A DNA stretch of 64,000 nt, from the NCBI GenBank assembly GCA_009869945.1, contig WIXG01000033.1, forward strand, positions 300,221-364,220, in the 5' to 3' direction. Below the pieces are notes generated by a model that was not told the DNA's origin, did no database searches, and saw only the letters and a list, made by a program, of their open reading frames with translations. Made by a program: the position numbers and the translations under genes. This document shows positions 39,001-45,000 of this stretch, piece after piece (positions within the stretch are counted from its first letter, which is position 1; each line of letters opens with the position of its first letter). Source of the DNA: Mesaphorura yosii (taxonomy: Eukaryota; Arthropoda; Collembola; Poduromorpha; Tullbergiidae).

Positions 39001-42000
39001 AACGTGACGTGATGACCTTTAAACAGAACCAACATCATTCAATTTTTAATATTACTAAATCTTGAAATAGAAAACAACACGACGCGCAAGTAAGCGATAT
39101 TCTATCTTCATTTCTTCAACAGAGTTGTCGTGGTCAGTGTCGGAGAGGAGAAAAATATCAGTTCTTATTCATCAGGTCCGTTTGTTCTAATTTCCTCATT
39201 TCAGCTAATTGAAGTTGTTAATAATTAAATAATAATAATAATATTAAGGAAATTAAACTCACACAATTGGAACTCTTGAGGTTTCCATGAATTTCCAAGT
39301 CCGACTCGTGCAGGTAAATCATTCCCTGCGTTAATGGAAAATGTCAGCCATGTGCCACGCCATTCCATTCTACTTTAAAACACTATCAAATGTACGTACC
39401 TTTATCAGATCATGGATCAGTGACGCAATGAAAGTGTGATCCAGGCGAATATCTTCGTTTTCAACAACATCCTACACATGACAGCAGATAGAAATCATAA
39501 TTTTAGTACAAACAGAAAAGGAGCAGATGATTTCGTTATCGGAAAGGAGCGCACAGGATAAAGGATATGAGATTAAGGCCTGGGAGAAAAGTCAAGAGGA
39601 TAAAAGCTGAAGAAGTTCCTTTCTTATTTACAGAGAAAGGCAGCAATGCGTTGAGTGTTTACTTGTAATATTTTATTGGCATCATTAAACATTTACTCGA
39701 GTTCTCGTTCTTTATTATGACAGGATGAAGTTTATTATTGCATTGAGAAATTAAGTCCAGCTGCACGAGCAAGCAAAACCATCCGTGCGTCCATCGGGGC
39801 GTGCAAGGCGAAAGGGAGAACCAATTTTTGGCACAAAAAAAAGAACGTGAAGAGATTATTTCAAACAAATAAAGTCAATAAGCCCTAAGCCAAGAGGGCT
39901 TCGAGAAAACGCTGGTATTAGATAAACTTTCACCTTTTGCTTCATACACGGACTAAGTCAATAGAGCAATAAGCAATATAGAAGACACTTAAAGAAGCTA
40001 TTAGAATTATTGCTGCAGTGTTAGAAAGTCAGTCTTCATACTCTCTGCGTCTTCGTGCACTTTTTTTATCGAATCAATGCACGTAAGCGAATCTATCCCG
40101 AAGAACCTTGACCAAATTGCAGCTGCAGTATGAGATTACAAGTTTGGAATAGGCTCGGCAAAATTAAACAAGACAGCGAAACAATTTTAGAACAAAAATG
40201 CCTTAACCTTTTGGATTAAATTAAATAGCTGGTTAGCTAGAACCGGCAAATTCCAAATTGAATGACGGGGATTTTTTCCCGTACAAGTGGGCAGTGATTG
40301 GTGGTAAATGGGATAAAATTCTTTAAAATTTCATAATAAACTCCAAGTTGAATTGAACCCAAATCAACCAGACTCGTGCAAAGTGTGCAAGAAAAGCAAA
40401 TCGAATTTACGGTGCCTTTTCTTTTTTTCAACGGCGTTCGTACAGCCCCGTGGTCATCCCCCATTTTGGCCTCTATTTTTCGATTCCCTTCGCAATATGA
40501 CTCACGAAAATACTGGGCTGGAACGGACTAAAGTCAAATGCAATTATTGGCCATGATGAACTATAAATTCATGAGCGCGTGACCAAAGAAATTCTAGCCG
40601 GAACATTCTTCGGATTCGTCGTGAAAGACTCATGTCATAAACTCATTTCTTTTTTCCCTCAACAAACATGAGCGCGTCGTATACAGGTAGCTTGTCGGAA
40701 GTAACGTTCAATGATCATATTTCTTGATTTTGTAGAACGCAACTAAAAGAGAACTAACGTCAGTCATCTTTGATGAATGTTGGTGAAAATTGTGTAAGAA
40801 GAATTTAGGAATTCAGATTTGAAAGTAATTCCAAATTTTCACAAATCCAATCGTTAAGCGGTGTGATCTACATTGAAAAGAAAACATCAAGAGGACGCGT
40901 ACGGGTAAAATCGATAGCTAAATGAAATTTTGATTCAGAGGCGAATGAATCAAAGGAGCTCAGGCCAAGAATGCCTTCATTTCTGGCAAGAGAATAATCT
41001 AGGCTTTGAAATTCTATGATCTAATTTTTATTATGGCCTCTATTCCGCATCCGCATTAGACCTCATTCGTATTTACGATCTGCCTCATTGCATTGCGCTA
41101 CGTACCCTCTTGCGCATTATTTTCATTGATACGTCGTCACCCGCGTGTTATGGTTATGATTATGATTGTTGTCACTGCCACTGTCAGTGTCAAGCAGGCA
41201 TGCCAATGCCATACGTGATTTAAAGTGAATGAAGTGCATCACAGATCATAAACCATAGACACACATCACAGATCATAGTTTAGTTGGAATCACAGGAGGA
41301 AATTCTGGAAAATGCCCACGGTGCCTCTGCAAACCAGCGCGCAAAGTCTAAGGCCCTTACTTTAAGGCAGCAACAACTACGACTATTCGACTATGAATAG
41401 ACTGTTAGTACCAATATAACTTCATTATTGTGCTATTGTGTTACCCAACAAAGCGTAATATGAGTGAACCAACACCATCACGAGACCGATAGGCGGCGGA
41501 GGGCAATAATAATCATATCGTACTCATGAAGTGCGAAGCGAAGTCTGCGAAGTATGGTGAAAGTGGATCATGCGGACAGAAAGCCTTGCTTTCCCTTTCC
41601 TTTGCCTTGTCTTGGAGAAATTCCAGTATAATAATGCATCGAAGAAATTTTATATCACTTTGCACTGCCACTCTTTTCGCGTGTCTTATTAGATCAAAAT
41701 AAAAATAAAGGCGAACATAATAATACAACTAAACTAAGTTTGACACTCGCGTGGCGTGGCACGTATCGCGTGAAGCAGGCTTGGAGCATGAAGGAGGTGA
41801 AGGAGGACGAAATGGATAGGGCGTAATGTAATAAAAGGCAGGATAAAATATAAACGTGGAACATAAAACGAGGTTTGCTTTCTCACAAACGCGGTATACG
41901 AAGCGAGCCAGAAAGAGTAAACGAAACAATGCAGCAGCGGTGCCGTGCAACGTACCGAAAGTGATCCTTTCCCGCAATAATCGTAGACAAGTTGTATCTG

Positions 42001-45000
42001 AAACGCTGTATACAGTGTGTGTATTAGAAGACCGTCCATAGCAAATTTTTTTTCTTCACCTTAAGCCGAGTTCTTATACACGTCATTAAATACCATGAAG
42101 TGAAAATTTGAATCGGAAGTCTGATTTGGCTTAAATATGGTATGAACTCGGCTTAATTTGCTTTGCTAAACGGTCTTCTAAAACGCACACTGTAGACAAA
42201 GTATTATTTACTTAATTTATTACTAATTTGAGCATTACAACGAAAAAAGCAAAGTTTCCAGCCGGGATTAAAATCCTTCACGTGGCACTCCCTGTTGTAT
42301 TGCAGTGCGAACTTTCTTGAAGTCCGAGCAAGTGTTTGTTTGGCTTTCGGTTTTCATTCTACGACAGTTAAGTTTTTGCTAACCGCTCAGTTCTAATCAC
42401 AACTCCAGGCTAACTCAATTAAAAGTACCTAATTATAAGTGGGTATTAATAAAAGATGGGTAAGCGCAAGTTCCACGCACAGAAGATTGTCAGATATTTG
42501 CAACCAAGCTTATTGAAACTGGAGGACTCCGTCCATGACGAACTAAGTTCTTACTAATCAGTATGGAAGTCGATCACGACATTAATTTCAGAAAACAGGA
42601 GAATTAAACGTATTGTTCTGAAATATGTCATCCGATCACTCCATGACAAAAGATCACGATTAATTGACATGTTTAATGCAGACAGACAATCGGGTAACGA
42701 TGAAGAGAATGGTGTGAATGATGCGGATGGTGATGCAATGGAGGAGGACTCTGTGGAACCGAAAGTAAGGTTTCAGGTTATTCATCCTGATTCATGCTAA
42801 GCATTGACTATTTTATGTTGAATCTTTTTGATCAGGTGTATACAAATTCCACATTGAATGTTCATTATTCCAAGTCAGCATCTGGAGTTTATCGCTGCCT
42901 GGCTGCAGAATGCAATTACACAATGACAGTCAGAAGATCAGTTAAGTCGCACTGTCGTAAATGCTATCCCGATCTGAGAGCAGCCAGCACCGGTATGCGT
43001 AAGAGGAAAAGTCTTCGTAAGCCAGTCTTATACCAATCGCAAAGTGTTAAGCAAAGATTAGCTGCCGCCGAAGCTGAGGAGGAAGGAAGAAAATCCGGGA
43101 AGCCACCAACATATGCGTGCAAGTTTTTGTTGTGTAAAGCAACATTTTATACCCGTCTGAATCTTCAAAAGCATGAATATGGTCATAAAGAGTAAGCCAG
43201 AGTCCAAATCTTGAAACTTAATTTATTCTTTTTGCTCGCAGAACTAATGGCAGACTTTCAACCTACCTCAAGAGTTTACCACAAAAACTACAGCACAAAC
43301 CTGAATTAAACACCCAAAAAAGCAATTTCGTCGGAAGGTATTCTTGAAAAATTACAGGAGGGTCTGCAACAAGTGTTCTAGAAAGTAATTTCAGTGAAAT
43401 CAACCTATTACGTCTACTTCGTTCTCATTGTGGAAAAACTGACAACAATTGGCCTTCTTCGATATATTAAAAACGTCATCCGACGAAGGCAATAAAGATC
43501 TATGTTGGCAAGAAGTGCATTCGCGGTGGGAAGACCCACGATGTGGAAGCTGACCATGAACACAGAAGCTCCAGTGCCATATTTCATGAATGCCTTAGTG
43601 GAGATATGGTTGCATTTGAAGTTGCACGACATTATCATGGAACTAGAGAAGCTATGGAGGCGGAAGAGGCATGTTGGCAGGTGAGCGGAAGCCAGCAGTC
43701 AGACTATAATTTCACTAATTTCAGCCCTATAATTTCAGTTTGCTCAATTTCAGCCCTATAATTTCAGTTTGCTCAATTTCAGCTAGTCGGTGAGTTACGT
43801 GAAGTAGCAGAAGATGATCCCACCGAAGTTCAGTGGAAGTGGATTAACAATAGAAGTGAGCAGTTAGCCATGTCAAAATTCACCACTGAACGCCGTGATC
43901 AAGCTTACTAGTTAGCGGTTACCAACCACGCATAATTTGTATTAAGGAAGGATGTGTTCTAATTCACAATCTCCACGGTCGTAAAAATGCTAAGGATTTC
44001 TATGGCAAGCTTCACCTTCATGAAAACGATATTGCGCCTTTCAGTATCTAACTACTTGAACTGGTTGAACTACTTAATATTGTTGTTTGTCTTCTACCTC
44101 CTAATCGAATTCCAAGCTTTGTTTATCTTATACTTCGACTTTGCTTTTTCGGTTGCACATTCTCAAACTCGTAATAAATTAAACCATGAAATAATAATCA
44201 CCATACCTTGAATTACGGCACCATGAAATGAATTAATGTTTGGATGCACAATTTCCCGCATGTAGCGCATCTCCTTCATTGTTTGTCTTGAGATTACGTG
44301 CTTCTTGATAAGTTTCAGCTCCTTCACTCGAACCACTGCGCCTGCACATGGGAATCAAGACACGTACGTTAAATTAGAAAATGGCACCGCAAAGTTGTAA
44401 ATGTAAACATTTAGATTCGGCATTGAGTTCAGTATTGTAAGTACCTTTGAAATGCGCTGTGGTACAATAGACTTGGCCGTAAGATCCAGCGCTCACGAGA
44501 CTCATCTGTATAGAAAGTAGAAATGTTTCATTAGTTGGTGATTATCAAAGTAAATATTTTCATTCACGCAGTAATGAACAGTGACTCGACAACGATTGTT
44601 CGCTTCAAGAGCGATTACAGGATAGAAGAGAATTTCGCAAGCTCAGATGCCGAAATCCGTTCCCAGAATGCAACTCACTCACGCGTGAGGCATTGGCACA
44701 TGCTCTCTTGCACCAACCGGTTTCATTAATGCGTTAATTACATTACGAAATCCAATTAATATCCAGCCAGCCCGACTTACCCTTGACTGCGTATGTTCGC
44801 CGAAAGGTTGTTGAAGCTGCAAATCGTCTCTGTCAATTTTCCAAAGGAGGCCAGCGATTTCCTGCTCGATTTTCCATTTACGGTATAGGCTAATCGCGCC
44901 GCCAACCACGACCACAAGCACAAACCCGAGGAGGCCAGCAGTAATTGTCGAGGTGGACAAGTGACTAGACTGTGGGCAGTACTCGTTTCGGAAACCGCAT

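What the first reader, a model, noticed from the sequence alone, without database searches (positions are those of the whole stretch)
42456..43911. Unrecognised zinc-finger locus nested antisense inside the guanylate cyclase gene
The cyclase intron between exons 11 and 12 carries a plus-strand spliced gene (188 residues, two zinc fingers, basic helix plus acidic linker) followed by a further 550 bases of protein-like but interrupted coding sequence. Seen: canonical splice sites, matching phases, finger Cys/His spacing. Known: C2H2 fingers bind nucleic acid. Inferred: a lineage-specific or transposon-derived gene. The first coding exon would be only ATG plus one base.
Basis: partly seen in the sequence, partly recalled or inferred. 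Interest (0 to 1): 0.7.

Follow-up and report, generated by a model that had tools for sequence, protein, structure and literature searches.

The report
Decayed intron-dwelling zinc-finger nuclease element
A stretch inside one intron of a signalling gene is a broken copy of a gene family scattered through this animal's genome that seems to encode a zinc-finger DNA-cutting enzyme; its copies sit backwards inside introns of other genes wherever the host could be recognised, and look like the remains of an unusual mobile element.

Summary
42456-44051 is one four-exon gene, now broken, of a dispersed family with at least 36 places in this 93-Mb animal genome. Those encode a domain whose two AlphaFold models resemble GIY-YIG homing endonucleases; sequence profiles and a PDB fold search do not show this. 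A strand test is striking: of open frames beside 26 copies, 0 of 132 on the gene's own strand match Pfam, while 150 on the opposite strand match 56 families. Thirteen of 29 copies lie antisense between Pfam-recognised pieces of apparently one host gene. The window copy is bracketed by ~55-nt inverted repeats inside the cyclase intron, as is a copy in a CaMKII intron (0 of 3000 shuffles each). Best reading: a decayed, inverted-repeat-bounded mobile element with a zinc-finger/GIY-YIG-like nuclease gene. Mobility and nuclease activity are inferred.

The parts
41998..44206 (-). Host intron of the kinase-like (by recall guanylate cyclase) gene, GT..AG, 2209 nt, that holds the element
   Evidence: Donor after ..AATTCAAG, acceptor TTTCAG before ATACAACTTG; flanking pieces match kinase profiles
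42202..42255 (+). Left inverted repeat arm of the element
   Evidence: 47 of 54 aligned positions complementary to 44138-44196; 0 of 3000 shuffles reach the score
42456..42764 (+). Exon A: MGKRKF..I..YL.P start motif, then acidic linker; one in-frame stop at 42555
   Evidence: Start motif shared with copies on C57, C49 and others; donor GTAAGG
42836..43191 (+). Exon B: two zinc fingers, fully open
   Evidence: Profile match 115.8 bits; donor GTAAGC
42896..42964 (+). Finger 1, C-x4-C-x12-H-x3-C
   Evidence: Pattern in translation; coordinates counted by hand
43118..43186 (+). Finger 2, C-x4-C-x12-H-x4-H
   Evidence: Pattern in translation; coordinates counted by hand
43242..43680 (+). Exon C: linker and GIY-YIG-like domain; broken by stops at 43345 and 43468 and by a frame change
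   Evidence: Profile matches 43412-43486 (one frame) and 43474-43680 (another frame); stops
43681..43782 (+). Own intron of the gene, containing an exact 29-nt tandem duplication with several TTTCAG hexamers
43783..44051 (+). Exon D: end of the nuclease-like domain and Cys/His knuckle; stops at 43909 and 43933 and a frame change
   Evidence: Profile matches 43780-43950 and 43929-44033
44138..44196 (+). Right inverted repeat arm; outer edge 10 nt from the host 5' splice site

Best explanation
The locus is a decayed copy of a mobile element about 2.0 kb long (42202-44196) bounded by inverted repeats. Its single four-exon gene encoded a protein with an N-terminal short motif, two zinc fingers, a GIY-YIG-like nuclease domain and a C-terminal Cys/His knuckle. 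Shown: a dispersed family, conserved exon order, inverted repeats in two copies, location antisense to host coding pieces wherever these were recognised, and lesions in this copy. Inferred: the fingers bind DNA (or the element's ends), the nuclease cuts target and/or element DNA, and copies spread this way. Copies that survived are those in introns in the orientation that does not interfere with host splicing. The window copy is dead as a full-length protein.
For: At least 36 distinct places at E<=0.001 on 33 contigs (my count over). Modules B, C and D follow each other on one strand in 23 of 26 stretches. Codon differences from the closest copy (C82, 139 kb) are mostly synonymous: pN/pS 0.34/0.76, 0.32/0.81 and 0.21/0.52 for B, C and D, so the frames were under selection for most of their history. 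Two AF2 models from different subfamilies (pLDDT 89 and 88) share a three-strand topology. Of the 50 BFVD hits shown for each, 17 of 30 and 23 of 36 named entries are GIY-YIG, Seg-like, intron-associated or homing endonucleases or their modules; the rest are uncharacterised or, once in each list, MSV199. Inverted repeats: window 47 of 54, CaMKII copy 85 of 110, 0 of 3000 shuffles each (scores 32 and 28, shuffle maxima 29 and 22); 650 mismatched arm pairs reach at most 22. Strand test: 0 of 132 frames against 56 families from 150 frames.
Against: Inverted repeats were found in only 2 of 29 copies tested, and no target-site duplication was recognised. The repeat arms have no second match in the genome. 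Fold matches are weak: no BFVD hit has E<=0.001 (best 0.023 and 0.09), and Foldseek against PDB lists no GIY-YIG among the 50 hits shown (best hit PurS, E 0.21). Sequence profiles do not call GIY-YIG: Pfam, NCBIfam and PHROGs give nothing; the one genome match of Pfam GIY-YIG belongs to another family; hhalign to the genome's LEM-3 relative has P 0.026 and probability 1.9 and is reached by 5 of 60 shuffles, and to the second nuclease-like family by 16 of 60. DNA searches with three copies as queries found nothing above 76% identity, so recent movement is not seen. No expression data.
Confidence: 0.6

Rival explanations
1. An ordinary lineage-specific gene family that spread by DNA duplication and birth-and-death, for example zinc-finger regulators with a domesticated nuclease domain, whose copies were moved passively into introns; the window copy is a pseudogene.
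For: Four of 26 stretches have matched parts of B, C and D without stop or frame break (C43, C4, C11, C15), though C15 has a stop just past its exon C match; selection on codons; no near-identical copies with three query copies; no target-site duplication.
Against: Dispersal to many contigs, antisense to host coding pieces in all 21 copies where Pfam shows a host, is not expected of segmental duplication. Inverted repeats bracket two copies.
Confidence: 0.2
2. A passenger family copied in trans by retrotransposons that keep introns. Penelope-type elements are reported to copy intron-bearing genes, perhaps through an antisense template.
For: The intron between exons C and D is at the same place in the copies looked at (14 listed), which speaks against ordinary processed retrocopies. 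Penelope elements in a rotifer spread an intron-bearing gene (PMC3846280, passages read). A second dispersed GIY-YIG-like family exists here.
Against: No Pfam family, hence no reverse transcriptase, on the gene's strand in 132 flanking frames. Inverted repeats bracket two copies. A Penelope source in this genome was not sought.
Confidence: 0.1
3. An autonomous introner: the element itself created the introns it sits in, its ends providing or adjoining the splice sites.
For: Right repeat edge 10 nt (window) and 18 nt (CaMKII copy) from the 5' splice site. Element plus a 200-nt palindrome leave only about 22 nt of other sequence in the window intron (counted). Five delimited introns of 1701-2209 nt exceed the gene by 331-613 nt. 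Fixed orientation.
Against: No shared sequence stands out at the intron ends of five copies (20 pairs; the best, C57-C406 on the donor side, is reached by 2 of 200 shuffles), and no duplication at splice junctions is evident. In the CaMKII copy about 80 nt remain, enough for an older short intron.
Confidence: 0.08
4. A still functional, truncated two-finger gene as modelled by the reader.
For: Exon B is fully open, and a splice path around the stop at 42555 exists that gives 178 residues.
Against: The first exon would be 4 nt; relatives use the same ATG as a long exon and continue where the model stops.
Confidence: 0.03

Closest known systems
GIY-YIG homing endonucleases of phages and group I introns (I-TevI and Seg type)
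   Same: Predicted fold of the domain; combination with a zinc finger in I-TevI (recalled); residence in introns
   Different: Nuclear, GT..AG introns, antisense, multi-exon gene; sequence similarity not detectable
Penelope-like elements
   Same: GIY-YIG endonuclease in animal mobile elements, and ability to carry introns (PMC3846280, passages read)
   Different: No reverse transcriptase found in the gene or on its strand beside 26 copies; inverted repeats in two copies instead of pseudo-LTRs
LEM-3/ANKLE1 GIY-YIG proteins
   Same: Animal GIY-YIG of similar size; this genome has a match at C1:866947-867505
   Different: Ankyrin and LEM domains in the family (PMC1564403, passages read); profile link not significant
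Plant EFFECTOR OF TRANSCRIPTION proteins
   Same: Cys/His zinc- and DNA-binding repeats plus a GIY-YIG domain (PMC6585611, passages read)
   Different: Three genes in Arabidopsis (same passages); different repeat type
Introners
   Same: Mobile elements found as introns, some with terminal inverted repeats (PMC9860276 and PMC7789003, passages read)
   Different: Known introner families have median lengths of 30-654 nt (PMC9860276); here about 2 kb with a gene on the opposite strand, and an intron-creating role is unproven

Membership tests
GIY-YIG nuclease superfamily | Fold: three-stranded antiparallel sheet with flanking helices | tested here: met
   Two models with strands at about 2-10, 34-40 and 70-80 and helices between; named viral-library hits are mostly GIY-YIG or homing endonucleases, but none reaches E 0.001, and the PDB library showed none in its first 50
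GIY-YIG nuclease superfamily | Tyrosines of the GIY and YIG boxes, then His, Glu and Asn at the catalytic places | tested here: met
   Y26, Y58, V59, G60, H76, E113 and N139 invariant in 5 of 5 rows of A3; in 11 rows of A1, exon C only, Y36, V37 and H54 are invariant and G38 and E91 at least 90%. Assignment to catalytic roles is recalled; the Arg position is unclear
GIY-YIG nuclease superfamily | Detectable sequence-profile relationship | tested here: not met
GIY-YIG nuclease superfamily | DNA cleavage | not testable with these tools
   Needs an assay
TIR DNA transposon | Terminal inverted repeats | tested here: met
   Met for the window copy and one other; 2 of 29 copies
TIR DNA transposon | Target-site duplication | tested here: inconclusive
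   None recognised outside the two pairs of arms; copies are old
TIR DNA transposon | DDE transposase | tested here: not met
   No such Pfam family in the gene pieces scanned or in 132 sense-strand flank frames
Penelope-like element | Reverse transcriptase joined to GIY-YIG endonuclease | tested here: not met
Introner | Element ends coincide with or adjoin splice sites, and introns are new | tested here: inconclusive
   Edges 10 and 18 nt from the donor; intron age not testable
C2H2-type zinc finger proteins | Cys/His spacing of the fingers | tested here: met
   (second finger C2H2, first C2HC); Pfam scores stay below cut-off

The most novel reading that the evidence does not exclude
A new kind of eukaryotic mobile element: inverted-repeat DNA elements whose only enzyme is a zinc-finger GIY-YIG nuclease, inserted exclusively into spliceosomal introns on the strand opposite to the host gene, effectively a nuclear intron-homing element and perhaps an autonomous introner.
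Probability: 0.3. Interest if true: 0.85.

Novelty: new variant of a known kind. Interest (0 to 1): 0.62.

Why it matters
If the reading holds, a GIY-YIG nuclease would serve as the mobilising enzyme of inverted-repeat elements in an animal nucleus, and a whole family would live antisense in introns. That would give a concrete, coding counterpart to the non-coding introners and a direct way to ask whether nucleases can target or create spliceosomal introns. It also shows how a broken mobile gene can pass for a new nested gene.

Tried and rejected
Rejected: the 4-nt first exon; a self-contained two-finger protein; membership by sequence in the LEM-3 or GIY-YIG Pfam families. Searches that led nowhere: IMG/VR and prokaryote genomes, one protein query each (22 and 31 pattern matches, none confirmed); Rfam (0 matches in the window); tRNAs (0); PDB by profile (two chance-level hits). 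Shared sequence at intron ends was looked for in five copies and did not stand out. A second dispersed nuclease-like family (36 match rows) was examined as a comparison in six loci. One copy (L053) has a myosin-tail exon on its own strand and one (L052) a Ras-like exon on the other; the hosts of the rest were not established by Pfam, and none of six has inverted repeats. So antisense placement is not a universal rule of this genome. The species could not be identified. Eight paper searches listed nothing that describes this family; the library holds only open PMC papers.

Counting notes: 26 stretches were merged from loci; three more copies (C181, C50, C18) were fetched, giving 29 of at least 36. 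In the strand test six of 156 antisense frames were left out to meet the limit of 150, and only 25 of the 56 families were listed. The three later copies were not in the strand test. Eight of 29 copies have no secure host match: C82 (249 kb), C11 and C49 were scanned only in the batch, C12, C110 and C4 singly without result, C198 gave a weak match (E 0.0065), C50 was not scanned. Several single host matches used E<=0.01 and lie below Pfam's cut-off (for example the upstream kinase piece, innexin, ZP, CaMKII upstream piece). Host pieces were cut by me at presumed exon ends. Modules missing: C187 lacks C, C23 lacks D, C45 (282 kb) lacks B. Rows of A1, A2, A3 and A6 were chosen because those exons are open; several come from copies broken elsewhere.

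Full report
What was checked. The window is G000:C33:300221-364220 of a 93-Mb, 1127-contig genome. Host genes beside other copies include an innexin-like one (Pfam E 9e-5 and 4e-4), so it is probably a protostome animal; the species is not known.

The gene. Searches of the same genome found relatives in many places: 32 match rows for the finger exon, 38 for the downstream segment and 32 for a second subfamily member's nuclease-like exon, plus two further places by DNA. Counting distinct places at E<=0.001 gives at least 36, on 33 contigs. In 23 of 26 stretches the finger module (B), the nuclease-like module (C) and the end module (D) follow each other on one strand. Upstream, some copies share a start motif M-[SAG]-KR-x-F...I..Y[FL] (clearest on C57 and C49); the window ATG at 42456 belongs to it. 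The window gene is therefore exon A 42456-42764, B 42836-43191, C 43242-43680 and D 43783-44051.

The copy is broken. In-frame stops lie at 42555 (A), at 43345 and 43468 (C, with the domain split over two frames), and at 43909 and 43933 (D, followed by a frame change). Exon B is intact. Of 26 stretches, 4 have matched parts of B, C and D without stop or frame break, and one of these four, C15, has a stop just beyond its exon C match. Compared with the closest copy (C82 at 139 kb), nonsynonymous differences are far fewer than synonymous ones: pN 0.34, 0.32 and 0.21 against pS 0.76, 0.81 and 0.52. So the protein was maintained for most of the divergence and decay came late.

The protein. Exon C alone gives a confident AF2 model (pLDDT 89), and a model from the other subfamily agrees (pLDDT 88). 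In the viral structure library, of the 50 hits shown for each model, 17 of 30 and 23 of 36 named entries are GIY-YIG, Seg-like, intron-associated or homing endonucleases or their modules; the other named entries are uncharacterised or MSV199; the best E-values are only 0.023 and 0.09. The PDB search showed no GIY-YIG in its first 50 rows. Invariant positions in five joined rows include Tyr, Tyr-Val-Gly, His, Glu and Asn, the order expected of GIY-YIG (recalled; the superfamily review PMC1564403 was read in passages only). Sequence profiles do not reach it: Pfam, NCBIfam and PHROGs are silent, the only genome match of Pfam GIY-YIG lies in a second family, and hhalign to the genome's own LEM-3 relative is matched by 5 of 60 shuffles. 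I therefore say 'GIY-YIG-like by predicted fold and motif', not 'member by sequence'.

Where the copies live. Open frames of at least 58 aa beside the 26 copies were split by strand. On the strand of the family gene 0 of 132 match any Pfam family at E<=1e-4; on the opposite strand 150 of 156 frames were scanned and 56 families matched. Copy by copy, at E<=0.01, Pfam finds pieces of what appears to be one host gene on both sides, antisense, in 13 of 29: kinase-like (window), carboxylesterase-like (C82), CNOT1, Gbeta, ion channel, CaMKII, Ig protein, myosin head, EGF/LDL-receptor-like, CH/bMERB protein, PH_19 protein, ligand-gated channel and innexin. In 8 more it finds a host piece on one side, also antisense (WD40, HDAC, LRR, TMC, Arf, bHLH, DEP and ZP). 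In 8 of 29 no secure host match was found or sought. So 21 of 21 recognised hosts are antisense; the sense strand of the three copies fetched last was not scanned. In the myosin copy the two host pieces, cut at the presumed splice sites, are adjacent in the Pfam model (39-95 and 95-136). Five introns delimited by splice-site choice are 1701-2209 nt long, with 151-458 nt between the gene and the splice sites.

Element ends. The window intron contains an inverted repeat, 42202-42255 and 44138-44196, that brackets the gene: 47 of 54 aligned positions match; score 32, 0 of 3000 shuffles reach it (maximum 29); with stricter scoring 54 against a maximum of 28 in 200 shuffles. Its outer right edge is 10 nt from the host 5' splice site. 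The copy in the CaMKII intron (C114, 181 kb) has a longer one, 85 of 110 positions, score 28, 0 of 3000 shuffles (maximum 22), 18 nt from the donor and about 62 nt from the acceptor. As a control, 650 pairs of arms from different copies score at most 22. The other 27 copies show none, as expected if unselected ends decayed, but this is also the main weakness. No target-site duplication was recognised, and the window arms have no other match in the genome.

Reading. The simplest account of dispersal as intron-bearing copies, of inverted-repeat ends in two copies and of a nuclease-like enzyme is an old mobile element. The antisense rule may be selective: a sense copy would expose splice and polyadenylation signals to the host transcript. 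Or it may be built into the insertion. Because so little of the window intron remains outside the element and a neighbouring palindrome (about 22 nt), an introner-like origin cannot be excluded, but the CaMKII copy leaves about 80 nt, enough for an older short intron. A comparison family of other GIY-YIG-like genes (36 match rows) includes a copy on the same strand as a myosin-tail exon and has no inverted repeats in six copies looked at.

Literature. Penelope elements can spread an intron-bearing gene (PMC3846280, passages). Plant ET proteins join zinc-binding repeats to GIY-YIG (PMC6585611, passages). Known introner families have median lengths of 30-654 nt (PMC9860276, passages). The eight paper searches listed nothing that matches this family; the library is incomplete.

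Verdict. Interest is moderate to high for the family and low for this broken copy on its own.

Noticed in passing
window 41999-42203: About 200 nt of near-perfect palindrome (-78 kcal/mol as RNA) abutting the 3' splice site of the next cyclase exon; no other copy found in the genome.
   Followed up: partly
window 43717-43774: Exact 29-nt tandem duplication inside the gene's own intron that multiplies TTTCAG acceptor-like hexamers.
   Followed up: no
L051-L056; 36 match rows: A second dispersed family with a Penelope-like GIY-YIG motif (by eye; one copy is a sub-threshold Pfam GIY-YIG match); one of six copies lies on the same strand as a host myosin-tail exon.
   Followed up: partly
L042, L051 (C512 about 40.0-44.2 kb): One LRR-gene region seems to hold two copies of the zinc-finger/GIY-YIG-like family and one of the second family, all apparently antisense (orientation judged by eye).
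   Followed up: no
L045 (C1:866700-867800): Clear LEM-3-type GIY-YIG match of this genome.
   Followed up: partly
L010 and L059: In two copies (C187, C18) module D follows module B closely and no module C was found.
   Followed up: no
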